Assembly: GCA_937968125.1 (NCBI GenBank)
Contig: CALBUI010000103.1
Coordinates: forward strand, 1-38,749
Origin: an uncultured Anaerolineales bacterium
Lineage (GTDB): Bacteria > Chloroflexota > Anaerolineae > Anaerolineales > UBA4823
Length of the DNA stretch: 38,749 nt
Direction: 5' to 3'
The position numbers and the translations under genes were made by a program. Positions 30,238 through 38,517 of the stretch are shown one piece after another; position 1 is the stretch's first letter, and the number at the start of each line of letters is the position of its first letter. The notes under the pieces were generated by a model, which made no database searches, had not been told where the DNA came from, and worked only from the letters and a program-made list of their open reading frames with translations.

Positions 30238-30921
30238 ATGAGTGATTGGGTAATCGAAGCTGAAGACTTGACCAAAGTTTACTTAATGGGCGAGGTTGAG
30301 GTACATGCCTTGCGCGGCCTTTCAGCTAAGATCGAACGCGGTGAGATGGTCTCTATTATGGGCCCCTCCGGTTCTGGTAAATCGACCTTGATGAATATTA
30401 TTGGCTGCCTGGACCGGCCAACCTCCGGTGAGTTTATCCTGGATAGAGAGCGGGTTTCAGAATTGAATGACGACCAGCTGGCCTCGATCCGCAACCAGAA
30501 AGTTGGTTTCGTTTTTCAAACTTTCAACTTATTACCTCGGGCGACGGCTCTGGCCAATGTCGAACTGCCAATTCGTTATTCAGGCTCGAGACGAGACCGC
30601 AGAGCACGGGCACAAGCAGCGTTAGAGGCGGTCGGGTTGGAGGATCGCATTCGGCATAGGCCAAACGAGCTCTCAGGAGGCCAACAGCAGCGGGTGGCGA
30701 TCGCCCGAGCTTTGGTCAACGATCCCGCCATCATCCTGGCTGACGAGCCGACTGGTAATCTAGATACCACCTCTGGCGATGAGATTATGCAAATATTGAT
30801 CGACTTAAACAAGGATCGAGAAACTACCCTCGTTATTGTTACCCACGATCCGGAAATTGCTGAACAAACCCAGCGCGTTATCCAGATCAGGGATGGCGTG
30901 GTTGTGGAGGCAGGTGAATGA
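30238..30921 (+). CDS. MacB/LolD-type ABC transporter ATP-binding protein
   Basis: [75 protein letters not shown]. Confidence 0.94.
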
Positions 30922-32144
30922 ATTTCGTACAATCTTTTTGGGAAGCGCTGGAGAGCTTATCCGCCAACAAGATGCGCTCCGGATTGACTGTTTTGGGAAT
31001 CGTGATTGGAGTGGCGGCGGTGATCGCCATGATCTCTATTGGCCGGGGGGCTGAGAATACGATCACCGGCTCGATTCAAGGGATTGGCACCAACCTGATT
31101 TTCGTATTTAGCGGTGGTTCGGAGGAAGCCAGGAACGTGAAACCGATCACTTTCGGCGATGCCGAGGCGATCGATGATCCATTCCAGGCACCATCAGTCG
31201 CGGCGGTCGCTCCCGTGATGCAGGGGCAGGCAGCCTTATCATTTGCCGGGGAAACGGCTAATATCCAAATTCAAGGGATCACCTCAGATTTTGATACCGT
31301 TCGCAATCGAACAGTGAAGGAGGGTGAATATATTAACGAGGCGCATATCCTGGGGAGAGCATCAGTCGTCCTGCTGGGTATAGACACCGCGGACAAGCTT
31401 TTCGGGCGTACATCAGGGTTGGTAGGCGAGACTGTGCGCATCGAAGGTCAACCCTTCCGGGTGATCGGGATTCTCGAAGAACGCGGCGGCTCTTCCTTCA
31501 ATAATGAAGACGACATTGCCCTGGTACCCATCTCGACCGCTCAAACCCGTTTGCTGCGGCGTTCACAACCTGACGCTGTTGATATGCTCATGGTTCAGGC
31601 AGCCAGCGCGGAGGTCGTGCCAGACGCCAGTCAGGAGATCGCCCAGATTTTACGCTCGCGCCACCGCACAGAAATCGGAGCGGATGACTTCACCATCCTC
31701 ACCCAACAGGATTTCCTGTCCACAGCTGAAACGATCACCGGCGTATTAACCATCTTCCTGGGGGGCATCGCGGCCATTTCCCTTCTCGTCGGTGGGATCG
31801 GCATCATGAATATCATGCTGGTCTCCGTCACCGAAAGGACACGCGAGATCGGACTGCGGAAAGCCCTGGGCGCCCGCAAGACAGATATCCTGATTCAATT
31901 TTTGACCGAATCCTCGGTGTTGAGCCTGTTTGGGGGTTTGATCGGGATCGCCTTGGGTTGGGCGATATCGTTGGTTGTGGGGCAGATCGCGGCCGCCAGC
32001 GATACGCCGATCGTTCCGGCGATCAGCATTGATATCATTTTGCTGGCGACGCTGTTCTCCACCGCGGTTGGTCTCTTCTTTGGAATATATCCCGCCAACC
32101 GGGCGGCGAATCTTGAGCCGGTGGAAGCGCTGCGTTACGAGTAG
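30918..32144 (+). CDS. MacB-type ABC transporter permease (MacB_PCD plus FtsX domains)
   Basis: [60 protein letters not shown]; 4-nt overlap with the ATPase. Confidence 0.94.
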
Positions 32145-32252
32145 TTGTCCGCGAATGACCACGAATTTTCGCTTATTAATTTATAAATACGATCAAGGGG
32201 GAGTGACTTCACTGTAATAAACACAAGCTTGCCGCCGAGGATCCCGTTTCGC

Positions 32253-32357
32253 GGGACAGGCCCCGGAACTCCATCCGGGACAGGCCCCGGAACTCCGTCC
32301 GGGACAGGCCCCAGAACTCCGTCCGGGACAGGCCCCAGAACTCCGTCCGGGACAGGC
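32253..32357. repeat. 24-bp tandem repeat, 4 copies plus a partial
   Basis: GGGACAGGCCCCGGAACTCCATCC / ...GGAACTCCGTCC / ...AGAACTCCGTCC / ...AGAACTCCGTCC / GGGACAGGC. Confidence 0.93.
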
Positions 32358-32515
32358 TTTCGACAAGAGCAAGTAGGGTTAAGTAAAAGGCCAGATTTAT
32401 AAGCGAAGGGATATTTATCCGCGAATTACACGAATTATCGCGAATTTTTTTTAATCCATAAGGTTTCTATCCCACCGACATTTGTCTGCACGAATTGAGT
32501 GTTAAATGAATATAT

Positions 32516-32547
32516 GGGGCTGGAATTTTCCCCTCATTTCCAGCCCC
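32516..32547. terminator. Hairpin downstream of the 23-aa-repeat gene (candidate terminator)
   Basis: GGGGCTGGAA-(12 nt)-TTCCAGCCCC; no long T-tract. Confidence 0.55.
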
Positions 32548-32567
32548 AAATATGGAAAGTTCATTGG

Positions 32568-33029
32568 CTATCTTTCCGCACCAAGCCACTCGCTCCGCTG
32601 GTAGGCATTGAACGGTTTACCATCGTATAGTCGTTCCGCGGGCTTGATAGTGTTCCTCTCGCTCGCGTGATAAATCGCCATACCTTCTTGTGTAGTACCC
32701 ACCAGCTGGACAGGGGCGTTGTTGCGCTCGCTTTCAAAGTAAATGGCCAAACCTTCTTCATTAGAAAATGTCGGCCCGACTGAGGAAGTGTTACGCTCAC
32801 TTTTGTGATAGATGGCCATCCCTTCCTGGATCACCCTGAAAGGTACACCCCGGTAGTCAGCCCACTCACTCTGTTGATAAATCTTCATGCCAGCTTCATT
32901 AACGCTTTGGTCGGAAGCCTGGTCTCGCGGGTTGTCTGAGTTGGAAGCGAAGACACCAAGAATGGAAAACGAAACAGCAAACATTACCACCAGAATGGCA
33001 AGCACTAGAACTAATCGAATTTTAGACAT
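32568..33029 (-). CDS. Secreted or membrane-anchored protein with five 23-aa YxxSE repeats, unknown function
   Basis: N-terminal hydrophobic segment LVLVLAILVVMFAVSFSILGVFAS; conserved Tyr at residues 51, 74, 97, 120, 143, each followed by xxSE. Confidence 0.8.
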   Translation of the reverse strand: MSKIRLVLVLAILVVMFAVSFSILGVFASNSDNPRDQASDQSVNEAGMKIYQQSEWADYRGVPFRVIQEGMAIYHKSERNTSSVGPTFSNEEGLAIYFESERNNAPVQLVGTTQEGMAIYHASERNTIKPAERLYDGKPFNAYQRSEWLGAER

Positions 33030-33169
33030 TTTGAACTCCTTTCCTTGTTAATTTGTTCCTGATTTGAGAAACCAATACCCACTTGGCCATGTGGCGTCGA
33101 TAGTGGCTCCAGGTTAGCATTATTAGTGCAACTACGGAAGACGGGGAAAAGGAGAGGCTTTTTGGAGTT

Positions 33170-33199
33170 GGGGGGAGGGGAAAAGGGGGGATTTTAGGG
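33170..33199 (+). other. Canonical G-quadruplex motif
   Basis: GGGGGG-A-GGGG-AAAA-GGGGGG-ATTTTA-GGG. Confidence 0.6.
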
Positions 33200-33307
33200 T
33201 AAATGTAAAAAAATCAGATATACTCTATATACTTTGGTTAAATTGGTAAGGAGGGGGACAATCAATGTCCCCCATTTCCTATAAGGGATATCTCCGGATT
33301 TACTGTT

Positions 33308-36300
33308 ATGGAAAACCTGGGCGAAAGAACAATCAAAGGCTATGAATTAATTGAGCGGATAGGTGCTGGGGGATTCGGCGCCGTTTATCGTGCTTACCAA
33401 TCGACTATCGGCCGGGAGGTAGCGGTCAAAATCATCCTGCCCAGCTATGCCAACCAACCGGAATTTATTCGCCGATTCGAGGCAGAAGCGCGACTTGTAG
33501 CTCGACTGGAACATTTACACATCGTGCCACTTTATGATTATTGGCGCAGTCCAGATGGCGCATATCTGGTCATGCGTTGGCTGCGCGGCGGCAACCTTAA
33601 GGAAGCACTCGCAGAGGAACCATTCGATTTGGAGGCGACTGGACTGCTGCTCGATCAGGTAGTGTCTGCTCTGGCGACTGCGCATGCGAATGGCATCGTT
33701 CACAGAGATTTAAAAACTTCAAATGTACTGCTTGACGAGGAAGGGAATGGCTATCTGGCTGATTTTGGGATTGCATTAGATATGGGTCAAATGGGTGACA
33801 CCTCCACCACAGGTGAACAGATAATTGGCTCACCCTCTCCAGAACAGGCGCGTGGCCAGCCGGTTACGCCACAAACGGATATCTACTGCCTGGGGATTAC
33901 CCTGTATGAAATCCTGACAGGTTCGCCTCCATTCCCTGGATTGAACGCCATCGAGCGCTTATACAAACATATCAACGATCCTATCCCGCCGATCGAATCG
34001 CTCGACCCCCACGTTCGAGATGATATCAATGCCGTCCTGCAGCGGGCAACCGCCAAGGATCCAAAACATCGCTACGTGGATGTCATCGCGATGTCAGCCG
34101 AATTCCGCGAGGCTGCTAAGTTGAGCGAGACAGGCAGAGCCGCTGACCTCCTGGAATCGTTGACCCTAAGGGAGCAAGAAATCCTGGGCATGATCGTCCA
34201 GGGACACACCAACCGGCAGATCGCACAAGATTTGTATATTGAACAATCCACTGTCAAGTGGCATATCCGCCAGATCTATAAGAAGCTGGGGGTGAGAAGC
34301 CGCAAGCAGGCAGTTGTGCGAGCTCGAGAATTGAAACTATTAATTGAGGATGGGTCAGAAAAGAAATCTGACGATATGAAAACTGACCTCCTCAGCGTCT
34401 CTGCGCTGCAGCCGGTGAATCCTTTCAAAGGACTACGCTCTTTCGAAACATCCGACAGGCGAGACTTTTTTGGCAGGGAGTCATTTCTAGAAAAGATTCT
34501 GGGCAGGCTGGCTGCTAACAATTCCCATATCCCTGCTCAAGATTCCAATAAATATGGTAACCGGTTTCTGGCCATAATTGGCCCCAGCGGGAGCGGCAAA
34601 TCCAGCCTGGTGAATGCTGGGTTGATCCCGCAGCTTTGGGAGGGCGCAGTTGAAGGTTCAGAGCGCTGGTTTATCGTGGGAATGACCCCAGGCTCGCGAC
34701 CGTTGGACGAATTGGAGGTGGCGCTGCTCCGTGTCGCCGCCGATCAGGCAGGCAATATTCGCGAGCAGTTGGAAAGGGACCGCAATGGACTGCTGCGCGC
34801 GGTCGACTTAATCCTGCCCAGGGATACCAGCGAGCTCCTTTTGGTGGTTGACCAGTTTGAAGAACTGTTCACCCTGGTCTCGGATGAATCCTCCCGGGCA
34901 CACTTTCTGGAGGTTCTGACCGCGGCAGCAACCGATCCACGCAGTAGGGTGCGCATCATCATCACCCTGAGGGCCGACTTCTACGATCGCCCGTTACATT
35001 ACCCCGAATTTGGTGAATTGATCCGCAACCATATCGAAACTGTCCTGCCCCTCACCGCTGAGGAATTGGAAAGGGCAATCGTATATCCGGTTGATCAAAT
35101 GGGGGTTGCGTATGAACCTGGACTGGTGGCCACTATTATCGATGATGTGCTCTACCAACCCGGCGCCCTGCCCCTGCTGCAATATGCCCTGACAGAGTTG
35201 TTCGAAGGCCGCGCTGGACTAACCCTGACTCGCGCGGCCTATGAGGAATTCGGAGGAACTGCTGGTGCACTTGCCCGCAGGGCGGAGGAACTATATCACG
35301 AGCAGGAAAGCGCAGGGCAGGAGGCGATCCGCCAGATGTTCCTGGGACTGGTCACGGTGGATGATGATTCTGCTGACTCTCCTGAAACCCGGCAGCGAGT
35401 AGCTCGTTCAGAACTGACCGCCATTGTTAAGGACGAAGAACTGGTGGATGAGATCATCGATGAGTATGCTGCTTACCGCCTGCTGACGCTTGACCACGAT
35501 CCCGAGAGCCGCAATCCAACGGTCGAGATCGCTCACGAAGCCCTGCTGCGTGAATGGGGGCGCCTGCGCGGCTGGCTGGATGAGAACCGCGATGACCTCC
35601 GCATACGGCGCCAGCTGACCCGTGCGGCAGAAGAGTGGCGCCAGGCTGACCAGGATGCCAGCTTTGCCTTGCGAGGCACGCGGCTGGAGCAGTTCGAATC
35701 CTGGAGCGAGACAACCCAGTTAGCCCTGACCCAAAGCGCACATGATTATCTTCAAGCCAGCCTAACGCTGCGCGATGAGCGAGAGGCGGCTGAGACTGCC
35801 CGCCGGGCACGGGAGGCGAAACTGGAACAACGCGCCGGGCGGGTGCTAAGGGTATTGGTGGTTATCTTCTTGCTGGCTGCGTTAATAAGTTCCGGGCTTG
35901 CAATCATAGCCGTCAACCAGCGTCAATCTGCTTTAGAGAGCGCGGCCGATGCCCAAAATGTGGCCCTGGTAGCCGGCTCGCAAGCGGCCCACGCCAATAA
36001 CGACGGTGATACAGCGCTGGCCCTTGCCTGGCAGGCTGTTTCGCTCAATCCCGACTCAGCCCTTGCGCAAGCGCAGTTGAGTGAAGCCGCTTATGCATCG
36101 GGCACTGTTCGCATCCTTACCGGCAATACAGATATGGTGACTTGGTCAGCCCTCAGTCCCGATGACAGAACTCTTTTCGGCGGGACAGATGACGGATTTG
36201 TTCATCTCTGGGAGCTGGAGACAGGTAAATTGCTTTGGGAGCACAAAGTACCTACGAAGTCAGATCCACCCTGGGTTACAAATGTCGCCTTCAGCCCTGA

Positions 36301-38023
36301 TGGGGGAGTTGTGGCTGCCACTTTCAATGACCTGATCATATTCTGGCAGGCAGATACGGGTGAGCTCATTCGCCATATTGATTCAAACGTCTATCGGCAA
36401 AAAATTGCCTTTCACCCGAATAGTGAACAATTTGCCACGATCGGATCTGAAGAACAGAGCCGCCTGGTAATATGGGACTATGCCTCGGGTGAAGTCCTTC
36501 GCCAATTCCATCATGGATCCTATATAGAAGACCTTGTCTACACCGCGGATGGATCGGCCATTCTGATCGCCGGTGTAGATGGTGTATTAACTTTGATAGA
36601 CACCCATACAGGACAGGTCATCCGTGAATTTGAGCATTACCAGGGGTCCACCTCTGTTCGGCTGCGTTACGTCGCAATCAGCCCGGATGGCACCCGGGTG
36701 ATCGGAGCTTTACTTGAAGCTGGGCTGGCGATTTGGGATTTCGCGACGGGTGAGCTGCTGCATACTTATACCTATGGAGGTGTCGTCTCTTTGGCATTTC
36801 ACCCGCTAGATGGCACGGTTTTGATCGGCGATTACAGTATTCTCCGGGTTATCGACCCGCAGACGGGCGCCATCTTACGATCCAATGTCGGTCACAGTCG
36901 GGGTATTCTAAGCATAGTGATTACATCGGATGGCTCATATGCTGTCACGACAGGAGTTGATTTAACAGTGCGGGTGTGGGAACTGCAGGGCGGGCAACTT
37001 GTTCGTCGATTTAGCGATCCTGGTGTGATTCTAGGGGATGTCGCTCTCAGCCCCGATGGTCGAACCATGTTGAGTGGTTCCGGAGATGGCTCCGTCACCT
37101 TGTGGGATGTTGAAACAGGAGAGATCATTCGCGCCTTTACGGATGATCAACCAATTACTGATTTGACCTTTTCACCGGATGGAAAAAAAGGGTTGGTTGG
37201 GGCGGGTTATTTAAATGCAGAGAAGGAAGAATCAGGGCATATCATCCTGTGGGATGTGGAAACCGGGGAGGAAATTCGCCGCTTCGTGGGACAACCTTAT
37301 GCAGTAGAGGCTGTTGATTTTAGCCCTGACGGTCGATTTGCGGTGTCTTCCGGCCCTGGCGCAATTGCGATTCTCTGGGATGTGGAAACGGGGACAGAAA
37401 TTCGACGCTTTGAAGATTACTGGGTGGACAGCATGTGGGGGACCGAATCGTATTGGGATGTAAGTTTTAGTCCTGATGGCAAGCAGATATTCGCCGCATA
37501 TTCCTACGGACCAATCATCGCATGGGATGTGGAAAGCGGCACAAAAATCCATGAGCTGGCCGGACATCGTACAGCGGCGAGGGGCATAACCTTCAGCAAG
37601 GACGGTCAGCAGCTCGTCTCTGGAGGCTCAGATTCCCAGATCATTCTCTGGGACATGGGTACAGGGAGCATACTACGCCGCTTCGCTACCCACGCTGGTG
37701 GAAGCGGGCAAATCCAGTTCTCTCCAGATGAAACGCTGCTATTAGGTGGTAGTTTGAGCGGTATTACCTCTCTTTGGCAAGTAGATACTGGTGAAGAAAT
37801 CCGGCGCTATACGGATGGTTTTGCTCCAAGTAAAAACTTCACCCCGGATGGGAATCATGCAGTGGTCGGGTTCCTTGACGGAACCGTGGAGCTATGGCGC
37901 ATTGACTCGAAGTTAGAAGAATTACTCACCTGGACACAGAACAATCGCTATATCCCTGAATTGACCTGCGAGCAGCGTGAGCTCTACCGCGTCGAGCCGC
38001 TGTGTGAACCCGAGTCAGGTTGA
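33308..38023 (+). CDS. Hanks-type Ser/Thr kinase - LuxR-type HTH - STAND NTPase - TM - WD40 repeat fusion protein (1571 aa)
   Basis: Kinase [149 protein letters not shown]; many FSPDG...LWDVETGEEIRRF repeats. Confidence 0.96.
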   Translation: MENLGERTIKGYELIERIGAGGFGAVYRAYQSTIGREVAVKIILPSYANQPEFIRRFEAEARLVARLEHLHIVPLYDYWRSPDGAYLVMRWLRGGNLKEALAEEPFDLEATGLLLDQVVSALATAHANGIVHRDLKTSNVLLDEEGNGYLADFGIALDMGQMGDTSTTGEQIIGSPSPEQARGQPVTPQTDIYCLGITLYEILTGSPPFPGLNAIERLYKHINDPIPPIESLDPHVRDDINAVLQRATAKDPKHRYVDVIAMSAEFREAAKLSETGRAADLLESLTLREQEILGMIVQGHTNRQIAQDLYIEQSTVKWHIRQIYKKLGVRSRKQAVVRARELKLLIEDGSEKKSDDMKTDLLSVSALQPVNPFKGLRSFETSDRRDFFGRESFLEKILGRLAANNSHIPAQDSNKYGNRFLAIIGPSGSGKSSLVNAGLIPQLWEGAVEGSERWFIVGMTPGSRPLDELEVALLRVAADQAGNIREQLERDRNGLLRAVDLILPRDTSELLLVVDQFEELFTLVSDESSRAHFLEVLTAAATDPRSRVRIIITLRADFYDRPLHYPEFGELIRNHIETVLPLTAEELERAIVYPVDQMGVAYEPGLVATIIDDVLYQPGALPLLQYALTELFEGRAGLTLTRAAYEEFGGTAGALARRAEELYHEQESAGQEAIRQMFLGLVTVDDDSADSPETRQRVARSELTAIVKDEELVDEIIDEYAAYRLLTLDHDPESRNPTVEIAHEALLREWGRLRGWLDENRDDLRIRRQLTRAAEEWRQADQDASFALRGTRLEQFESWSETTQLALTQSAHDYLQASLTLRDEREAAETARRAREAKLEQRAGRVLRVLVVIFLLAALISSGLAIIAVNQRQSALESAADAQNVALVAGSQAAHANNDGDTALALAWQAVSLNPDSALAQAQLSEAAYASGTVRILTGNTDMVTWSALSPDDRTLFGGTDDGFVHLWELETGKLLWEHKVPTKSDPPWVTNVAFSPDGGVVAATFNDLIIFWQADTGELIRHIDSNVYRQKIAFHPNSEQFATIGSEEQSRLVIWDYASGEVLRQFHHGSYIEDLVYTADGSAILIAGVDGVLTLIDTHTGQVIREFEHYQGSTSVRLRYVAISPDGTRVIGALLEAGLAIWDFATGELLHTYTYGGVVSLAFHPLDGTVLIGDYSILRVIDPQTGAILRSNVGHSRGILSIVITSDGSYAVTTGVDLTVRVWELQGGQLVRRFSDPGVILGDVALSPDGRTMLSGSGDGSVTLWDVETGEIIRAFTDDQPITDLTFSPDGKKGLVGAGYLNAEKEESGHIILWDVETGEEIRRFVGQPYAVEAVDFSPDGRFAVSSGPGAIAILWDVETGTEIRRFEDYWVDSMWGTESYWDVSFSPDGKQIFAAYSYGPIIAWDVESGTKIHELAGHRTAARGITFSKDGQQLVSGGSDSQIILWDMGTGSILRRFATHAGGSGQIQFSPDETLLLGGSLSGITSLWQVDTGEEIRRYTDGFAPSKNFTPDGNHAVVGFLDGTVELWRIDSKLEELLTWTQNNRYIPELTCEQRELYRVEPLCEPESG

Positions 38024-38187
38024 GAGCTGATTCTCCGCGAATTGCGTCCCGCACTTCGTACGGTAAAACTTCTTACGCGAATTTACGCTAATTTCGTTAA
38101 ATTACACGTTCGAGGGGGCGTCTCTTCACCTCGCCACCAAGGATCCCGTGTTACGGGAGCTTGAGCGAGTTTTATTCAAAGATCTAT

Positions 38188-38517
38188 TTAATCCTGTCGA
38201 GTTACATCTTTTATCCAACCCAGATAATCTTCAGAGCCCATAATGATCGGCAAGGCGATGATCTCGGGTACATCATAGGGGTGTACCGCCTTTACCGCGG
38301 GGATCAAATCTTCTTCAAATAAATCAGCTCTACTTTTGACGATCAGCAGCATTTCCTCATCGCGGTTGATCTCCCCCTCCCAGGTATACAGCGAAGTCAC
38401 TGGTGTCATCACATTGACACAGGCAGCCAGTTTCTGGTCCAGCAATGTGTTGGCGATCTGCTGGCTGATTTCCTCATTGGGGCAAGTAATAAAAACGATG
38501 ATGTATTCCACGTTCAT
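38188..38517 (-). CDS. cutA: CutA1 divalent-cation tolerance family protein
   Basis: FITCPNEEISQQIANTLLDQKLAACVNVMTPVTSLYTWEGEI, VKAVHPYDVPEIIALPI. Confidence 0.95.
   Translation of the reverse strand: MNVEYIIVFITCPNEEISQQIANTLLDQKLAACVNVMTPVTSLYTWEGEINRDEEMLLIVKSRADLFEEDLIPAVKAVHPYDVPEIIALPIIMGSEDYLGWIKDVTRQD

What the first reader, a model, noticed from the sequence alone, without database searches (positions are those of the whole stretch)
32568..33029. Small exported protein built from five exact-period 23-aa YxxSE repeats
After a hydrophobic N-terminal segment, conserved Tyr residues fall at 51, 74, 97, 120 and 143, exactly 23 aa apart. The repeats read KIYQQSEWAD, AIYHKSERNT, AIYFESERNN, AIYHASERNT, NAYQRSEWLG. 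I do not recognise this as a named domain. Invariant Tyr/Ser/Glu plus Trp/Arg in exact register suggests a solenoid or a repeated ligand-binding or adhesive motif. It lies directly upstream of, and divergent from, the kinase-STAND-WD40 gene.
Basis: partly seen in the sequence, partly recalled or inferred. Interest (0 to 1): 0.62.

Follow-up and report, generated by a model that had tools for sequence, protein, structure and literature searches.

The report
Membrane-anchored repeat protein paired with STAND regulators
A small, previously unnamed membrane-anchored protein made of repeated Tyr-x-x-Ser-Glu-Arg/Trp motifs sits next to a large signalling switch gene in an Anaerolineae bacterium, and several other switches of the same kind in this genus also face a small exported protein, so it is probably the surface output (or sensor) of that switch.

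Summary
ORF 32568-33029(-) encodes 153 aa: one N-terminal transmembrane segment, then five Y-x-x-S-E-[R/W] motifs exactly 23 aa apart. It matches nothing in Pfam, NCBIfam, PADLOC or PDB sequences. Four homologues were found, all Anaerolineae: a 7-repeat paralogue in the same genome, its 8-repeat orthologue in a congener, and two more distant proteins. All share topology and motif, but spacing varies (18-28 aa). Motif cores are under strong purifying selection (dN/dS about 0.07). The exact 23-aa register, and hence a solenoid, is therefore not a family trait; structure prediction was low-confidence and inconsistent.

The strongest result concerns the neighbour. The repeat gene and the divergent kinase-LuxR-nSTAND1-WD40 gene are the only genes in a 6.0-kb islet absent from the same site in three congeners. 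The paralogue sits with two SARP-NB-ARC-TPR genes in a second islet. In this genus 11/24 STAND regulators face a small exported protein across 131-329 bp (control 2/39 large ORFs, p=2e-4; 6/276 ORFs, p=6e-10). Three of these have other tandem motifs. A different family's genome showed 0/22.

Best reading: an extracytoplasmic, multivalent motif-on-a-string protein controlled by the adjacent STAND transcription regulator. The direction of control is inferred.

The parts
32568..33029 (-). CDS, 153-aa N-anchored YxxSE[R/W] repeat protein
   Evidence: no match in Pfam, NCBIfam, PADLOC or PDB
33036..33042 (-). Shine-Dalgarno-like AAAGGAG, 6 nt before the ATG
   Evidence: read from the sequence
32952..33011 (-). 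transmembrane segment, residues 7-26
   Evidence: hydropathy 2.92 and charge asymmetry; AlphaFold helix 3-28, pLDDT about 83
32862..32891 (-). repeat core 1, GMKIYQQSEW
32793..32822 (-). repeat core 2, GMAIYHKSER
32724..32753 (-). repeat core 3, GLAIYFESER
32655..32684 (-). repeat core 4, GMAIYHASER
32586..32615 (-). repeat core 5, PFNAYQRSEW (lacks the G-[ML]-x-I lead-in)
32510..32553 (-). hairpin after the stop codon, probable terminator (no T-run)
   Evidence: 16-nt arms, 94% complementary
33030..33307 (.). 278-bp divergent intergenic region shared with the regulator gene
33253..33273 (.). palindrome GGGGGACA-atcaa-TGTCCCCC, candidate operator or leader hairpin
   Evidence: function untested
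33308..38023 (+). Ser/Thr kinase - LuxR/GerE HTH - nSTAND1 - WD40 regulator, 1571 aa
   Evidence: Pkinase 4e-44, nSTAND1 1.5e-117, WD40; GerE 9.5e-20
32145..38187 (.). islet carrying exactly these two genes between macB permease (30918-32144) and cutA (38188-38517)
   Evidence: the same junction is 34, 102 and 37 bp in G003, G004 and G002
32252..32357 (+). 24-bp DNA tandem array, 4.4 copies, inside the left end of the islet

Best explanation
The gene encodes a small type-II (N-in/C-out) membrane-anchored protein. Its extracytoplasmic part is a string of short conserved motifs (core G-[ML]-x-I-Y-x-x-S-E-[R/W]) joined by variable linkers, so it is a multivalent display of one binding motif rather than a rigid solenoid. 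It is functionally coupled to the divergently transcribed kinase-LuxR-nSTAND1-WD40 protein, a STAND-type transcription regulator. The most likely mechanism has three steps. A cytoplasmic stimulus is read by the WD40 (or TPR) part and switches the STAND ATPase. The DNA-binding part then activates the shared divergent promoter. The repeat protein is made and displayed at the cell surface as the output. Shown here: gene, motif, family, topology prediction, purifying selection, co-occurrence with STAND genes at two variable sites, and a genus-wide excess of STAND regulators facing small exported proteins. Inferred: the direction of control, surface display, and a binding or adhesive role for the motif.
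For: Five family members in at least three Anaerolineae lineages share one N-terminal TM with N-in charge asymmetry and 5-8 motifs. Motif cores are under purifying selection between orthologues (dN 0.052, dS 0.737) while leader/TM is looser (0.32/0.81). The repeat gene and regulator are the only genes in a 6,043-bp segment between macB and cutA; three congeners have 34-102 bp there. The 8-repeat orthologue lies with two SARP-NB-ARC-TPR genes between FTR1 and HPRT in G004, where G003 has FTR1 directly followed by HPRT; the same gene set adjoins HPRT in the window's genome and is absent beside HPRT in G001. Such regulators are few (11 BTAD hits and 6 nSTAND1 hits over cut-off in the window's genome). 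In this genus 11 of 24 STAND regulators have a divergent small exported neighbour within 400 bp, against 2/39 large control ORFs and 6/276 control ORFs (Fisher p 1.9e-4 and 6.5e-10). Three of those partners are N-anchored tandem-motif proteins with other motifs. The regulator has a LuxR/GerE HTH, consistent with transcriptional control.
Against: No expression, localisation or binding data. The paralogue and its orthologue are convergent, not divergent, with their STAND gene (78 and 84 bp). The two distant homologues lack a direct STAND neighbour: in G335 a SARP gene is 3.7 kb away, and L058 adjoins a PAS-GAF-HD-GYP gene at a contig end. G335 shows no excess of divergent exported partners (0/22). 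The 24 regulators include related paralogues and one orthologous pair, so they are not fully independent, and the window's own locus is among them. No operator shared between loci was demonstrated. Islet absence in congeners could be loss rather than gain.
Confidence: 0.5

Rival explanations
1. The repeat protein is an input rather than the output: a membrane-anchored sensor or inhibitor whose extracellular motifs bind a ligand and whose short cytoplasmic tail controls the STAND regulator.
For: Membrane topology and genetic linkage at two sites; divergent pairs can also encode a regulator and its sensor.
Against: The cytoplasmic tail is only about 6-19 residues and is not conserved across the family, leaving little to transmit a signal.
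Confidence: 0.2
2. The locus is a STAND-based conflict or immunity module of multicellular bacteria, with the small membrane protein as effector (membrane perturbation) or decoy.
For: nSTAND1 with kinase and WD40 resembles the parts list of reported conflict systems (PMC7159879, PMC10907252); two-gene islets with patchy presence.
Against: The STAND partners carry DNA-binding domains (GerE, or BTAD of SARPs), pointing to transcription. PADLOC matches are to the generic kinase domain and TPR only; the repeat protein has none. Conserved polar motifs do not resemble a membrane toxin.
Confidence: 0.12
3. The motifs form a short beta- or alpha-solenoid, a single folded binding surface.
For: Exact 23-aa register here, near-regular 20-22 aa in the paralogue; best AlphaFold model of the 8-repeat orthologue shows one strand per motif (pLDDT 57, pTM 0.44).
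Against: Spacing varies 18-28 aa in homologues; the window protein modelled as unconfident isolated helices (pLDDT below 50); the models disagree in secondary structure.
Confidence: 0.12
4. The repeats are a multi-copy peptide precursor: exported, cleaved and released as several short signalling peptides that the STAND regulators sense in a population.
For: Conserved cores separated by variable spacers, basic residue at the core end in most units, export signal, adjacent regulator.
Against: Cores are not identical within one protein, R is replaced by W in some units and throughout the G335 protein, and no processing site or protease gene was seen to be linked; STAND sensors are cytoplasmic.
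Confidence: 0.06
5. Spurious or neutral ORF made by tandem DNA duplication.
For: Tandem arrays occur nearby (24-bp array).
Against: dN/dS about 0.07 in motif cores, good ribosome-binding site, conserved architecture in distant Anaerolineae.
Confidence: 0.02

Closest known systems
AfsK-AfsR-AfsS cascade of Streptomyces
   Same: Ser/Thr kinase plus SARP/STAND ATPase regulator that activates the gene of a small protein (afsS, 63 aa; PMC6988585, PMC4415409). Here SARP-NB-ARC-TPR genes or a kinase-GerE-nSTAND1-WD40 fusion adjoin a small repeat protein gene.
   Different: AfsS is a 63-aa protein described as acting on transcription of other regulators; ours is predicted to be membrane-anchored with extracytoplasmic motifs. 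No homology was tested or claimed. The kinase, HTH and STAND are fused in one protein here. Control of the small gene is not shown.
STAND / nSTAND1 conflict systems of multicellular bacteria (PMC7159879, PMC8195603, PMC10907252)
   Same: nSTAND1, kinase and WD40 domains in one protein; patchy islet distribution; Chloroflexota among the reported hosts.
   Different: DNA-binding domain instead of an effector or adaptor domain; the partner is a small N-anchored tandem-motif protein without a known effector domain.
Exported short-repeat surface proteins (choline-binding and similar cell-wall repeats; recalled, not tested against beyond profile searches)
   Same: About 20-aa units with a conserved aromatic residue, extracytoplasmic.
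   Different: No profile match at or above cut-off in Pfam or NCBIfam; the motif Y-x-x-S-E-[R/W] is unrelated and linkers vary.

Membership tests
YxxSE[R/W] tandem-motif family (defined here) | Single N-terminal TM with N-in/C-out charge asymmetry followed by at least 5 Y-x-x-S-E motifs | tested here: met
   All five proteins
YxxSE[R/W] tandem-motif family (defined here) | Fixed 23-aa period | tested here: not met
   18-28 aa in homologues, so it is not used as a defining feature
Known repeat family (Pfam, NCBIfam, PDB) | Profile or sequence match above cut-off | tested here: not met
Solenoid repeat protein | Confident regular inter-repeat packing | tested here: inconclusive
   pLDDT 45 and 57, contradictory secondary structure
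AfsR/AfsS-type regulator-target pair | Small gene adjacent to a SARP/STAND-type regulator with a DNA-binding domain | tested here: met
   GerE; BTAD, NB-ARC, TPR; adjacency
AfsR/AfsS-type regulator-target pair | Regulator binds and activates the small gene's promoter | not testable with these tools
   Only a palindrome at 33253-33273 as a lead
AfsR/AfsS-type regulator-target pair | Small protein is an AfsS homologue | not tested
   No AfsS sequence compared; the predicted membrane anchor argues against it
nSTAND conflict or defence system | Effector or adaptor domain on the STAND protein, or a recognised defence partner | tested here: not met
   PADLOC hits confined to generic kinase and TPR; none on the repeat protein

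The most novel reading that the evidence does not exclude
In this Anaerolineae genus, STAND transcription regulators form a modular surface-display system. Each regulator travels as an islet with its own divergently encoded, membrane-anchored tandem-motif protein, and the motif (YxxSER, ARYQGLAD, SRLEELARVKDE) is exchanged between modules, giving clone- or state-specific multivalent cell surfaces, for example for filament or kin adhesion.
Probability: 0.2. Interest if true: 0.8.

Novelty: new variant of a known kind. Interest (0 to 1): 0.55.

Why it matters
STAND regulators are numerous in filamentous Chloroflexota and, to my knowledge, their outputs are largely unknown. A simple, recurring arrangement (regulator facing a small exported protein, sometimes built of tandem motifs) gives concrete candidate targets for 11 of 24 of them in one genus. 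It also names a short surface motif whose binding partner could be sought directly with synthetic peptides. The two islets suggest that the repeat gene and STAND regulators move together.

Tried and rejected
Protein searches of 32 family and 396 class genomes gave only congeners; other class hits at E 0.003-0.008 were inspected and rejected as unrelated. A single-motif DNA pattern gave chance hits in unrelated proteins. A three-motif gapped pattern worked and found the G335 and S25.Bin185 homologues; other hits (Oceanobacillus, Anaerotignum, Proteiniphilum and others) were rejected by reading frame or motif. Viral contigs and plasmids: nothing. Pfam weak hits (Lectin_leg-like, DUF5669, DUF2371) are below cut-off and not shared by the family. 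Kinase phosphorylation of the repeats was rejected on topology. A conserved neighbourhood across the whole family was rejected: distant members have other neighbours. Generality of the divergent pairing was tested in G335 and not found. A shared repeat flanking the islet was considered; the similarity between its ends is weak (29 bp, 79%, E 0.09-0.26) and was not pursued. Low-confidence models were not sent to fold search.

Full report
OBSERVATION. The 153-aa ORF at 32568-33029(-) is real. It has a good ribosome-binding site (AAAGGAG, 6 nt from the ATG) and a hairpin after the stop. Five Y-x-x-S-E-[R/W] motifs lie exactly 23 aa apart; shuffling the mature region 200,000 times never gave more than one copy. 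Units 1-4 share their cores (45-91% aa identity) but not their linkers (0-17%), and units 2 and 4 are 91% identical in core aa but only 73% in core DNA. This is what selection on the protein sequence would leave.

FAMILY. No Pfam, NCBIfam, PADLOC or PDB match. In the window's own genome there is one paralogue, G000:C338:12256-12855, with 7 motifs. A congener (G004) has its orthologue with 8 motifs. Whole-class searches by protein found no others. A three-motif gapped DNA pattern found two more distant members: L056:8368-8931 (contig JABTUK010000002.1, Anaerolineales H5_CFX5, motif YHQSEW) and L058:179-604 (contig JAABUE010000036.1, Anaerolineales S25.Bin185). All five proteins have one N-terminal TM, a net positive N-terminal side, and repeats after it. 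Spacing is 23 in the window, 20-22 in the paralogue and orthologue, 18-26 in G335 (counting one degenerate copy) and 18-28 in S25.Bin185, so a fixed period is not a family feature. Between the paralogue and its orthologue, dN/dS is 0.07 in motif cores, 0.10 over the last two units and 0.40 in the leader/TM.

STRUCTURE. AlphaFold2 on the window protein with its four relatives: TM helix confident (pLDDT about 83), the rest below 50 with weak helices at each motif. With the 8-repeat orthologue first: one weak strand per motif, pLDDT 57, pTM 0.44, five models from 35 to 57. The two disagree; the fold is unresolved. I favour motifs on a flexible string because of the variable spacing.

GENE CONTEXT, SITE 1. 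The neighbour 33308-38023(+) is Pkinase - GerE/LuxR HTH - nSTAND1 - WD40; K, HRD and DFG kinase motifs are present in its sequence. In congeners G003, G004 and G002 the macB permease is followed by cutA after 34, 102 and 37 bp; in the window the same two genes are 6,043 bp apart, and the intervening segment holds only the repeat gene and the kinase-STAND gene. Gain in this lineage is the simpler reading; loss in the others is possible.

SITE 2. In G004, between FTR1 and HPRT, lie two SARP-NB-ARC-TPR genes and the YxxSER gene; in G003 FTR1 is followed directly by HPRT (209 bp); in G001 HPRT has other neighbours; the window's genome has HPRT, YxxSER and two SARP genes. Thus at two unrelated sites the YxxSER gene is present or absent together with STAND regulators. 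Such regulators are few: 11 BTAD hits and 6 nSTAND1 hits over cut-off in the window's 4.26-Mb genome, partly overlapping.

GENERAL PATTERN. I fetched loci of the other BTAD/nSTAND1 genes in G000, G003 and G004 and random regions of G003. Of 24 STAND regulators with a visible upstream neighbour, 11 face a divergent protein of at most 350 aa with an N-terminal hydrophobic segment within 400 bp (131-329 bp); the same holds for 2 of 39 large control ORFs and 6 of 276 control ORFs (p 1.9e-4 and 6.5e-10). Three of the partners, besides the window's, are N-anchored tandem-motif proteins with different motifs: SARYQGLAD (L135:8846-9616; L140:2766-3716) at 26-aa spacing and SRLEELARVKDE (L143:7958-8464) at 23 aa. 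In 400 kb of G003 control sequence the only repeat hit was a low-complexity Asn/Asp-rich protein. Caveats: the 24 are not fully independent (paralogues, one orthologous pair, the window itself is included), thresholds were chosen here after a first look at the loci, and genome G335 of another family shows no such excess (0/22).

MECHANISM. A divergent arrangement across a short intergenic region with a DNA-binding regulator suggests control of the small gene by the regulator; the closest precedent is AfsK-AfsR-AfsS (PMC6988585, PMC4415409). A palindrome GGGGGACA-N5-TGTCCCCC ends 34 bp before the regulator's ATG and may be an operator or a leader hairpin. The motifs are predicted outside the cytoplasm, so direct contact with the cytoplasmic WD40 or kinase is unlikely. 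I therefore place the repeat protein as output, with sensor as the main rival. Surface binding or adhesion is inference.

VERDICT. Observation confirmed; solenoid not supported; kinase-STAND link supported and extended. New protein family; as a system, a new variant of a regulator-target pair.

Noticed in passing
L135:8846-9616 (G000:C257): 256-aa N-anchored protein with seven or eight SARYQGLAD-type motifs at mostly 26-aa spacing, 197 bp divergent from a SARP regulator.
   Followed up: partly
L140:2766-3716 (G003): 316-aa N-anchored protein with nine SA[RH]YQ[GY]xAD motifs, divergent from a 1778-aa SARP-nSTAND1 regulator; shares the motif with L135.
   Followed up: partly
L143:7958-8464 (G003): 168-aa N-anchored protein with SRLEELARVKDE repeats at 23-aa spacing, divergent from a 1277-aa nSTAND1 gene.
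   Followed up: partly
L144:2823-3764 (G003): 313-aa lipoprotein (lipobox LTAC) with short PEEV-type repeats near its N-terminus, divergent from a SARP-nSTAND1 gene.
   Followed up: no
window 32252-32357: 24-bp DNA tandem array (CGGGACAGGCCCCAGAACTCCGTC, 4.4 copies) inside the left end of the islet, found nowhere else in the window.
   Followed up: partly
window 32145-32256 and 38024-38158: Weakly similar stretches at the two ends of the islet (29 bp at 79%), each with CGCGAAT-type sequence; could be remnants of the insertion mechanism.
   Followed up: partly
L138, L147, L148 (upstream of SARP genes): A related 160-179-aa non-exported protein with CxxC-type sequence, possibly transposon-derived, faces a SARP gene in three congeneric genomes.
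   Followed up: no
L056:4807-6339: 510-aa protein without a Pfam match between a SARP gene and a beta-helix-like exported protein upstream of the G335 YxxSEW gene.
   Followed up: no
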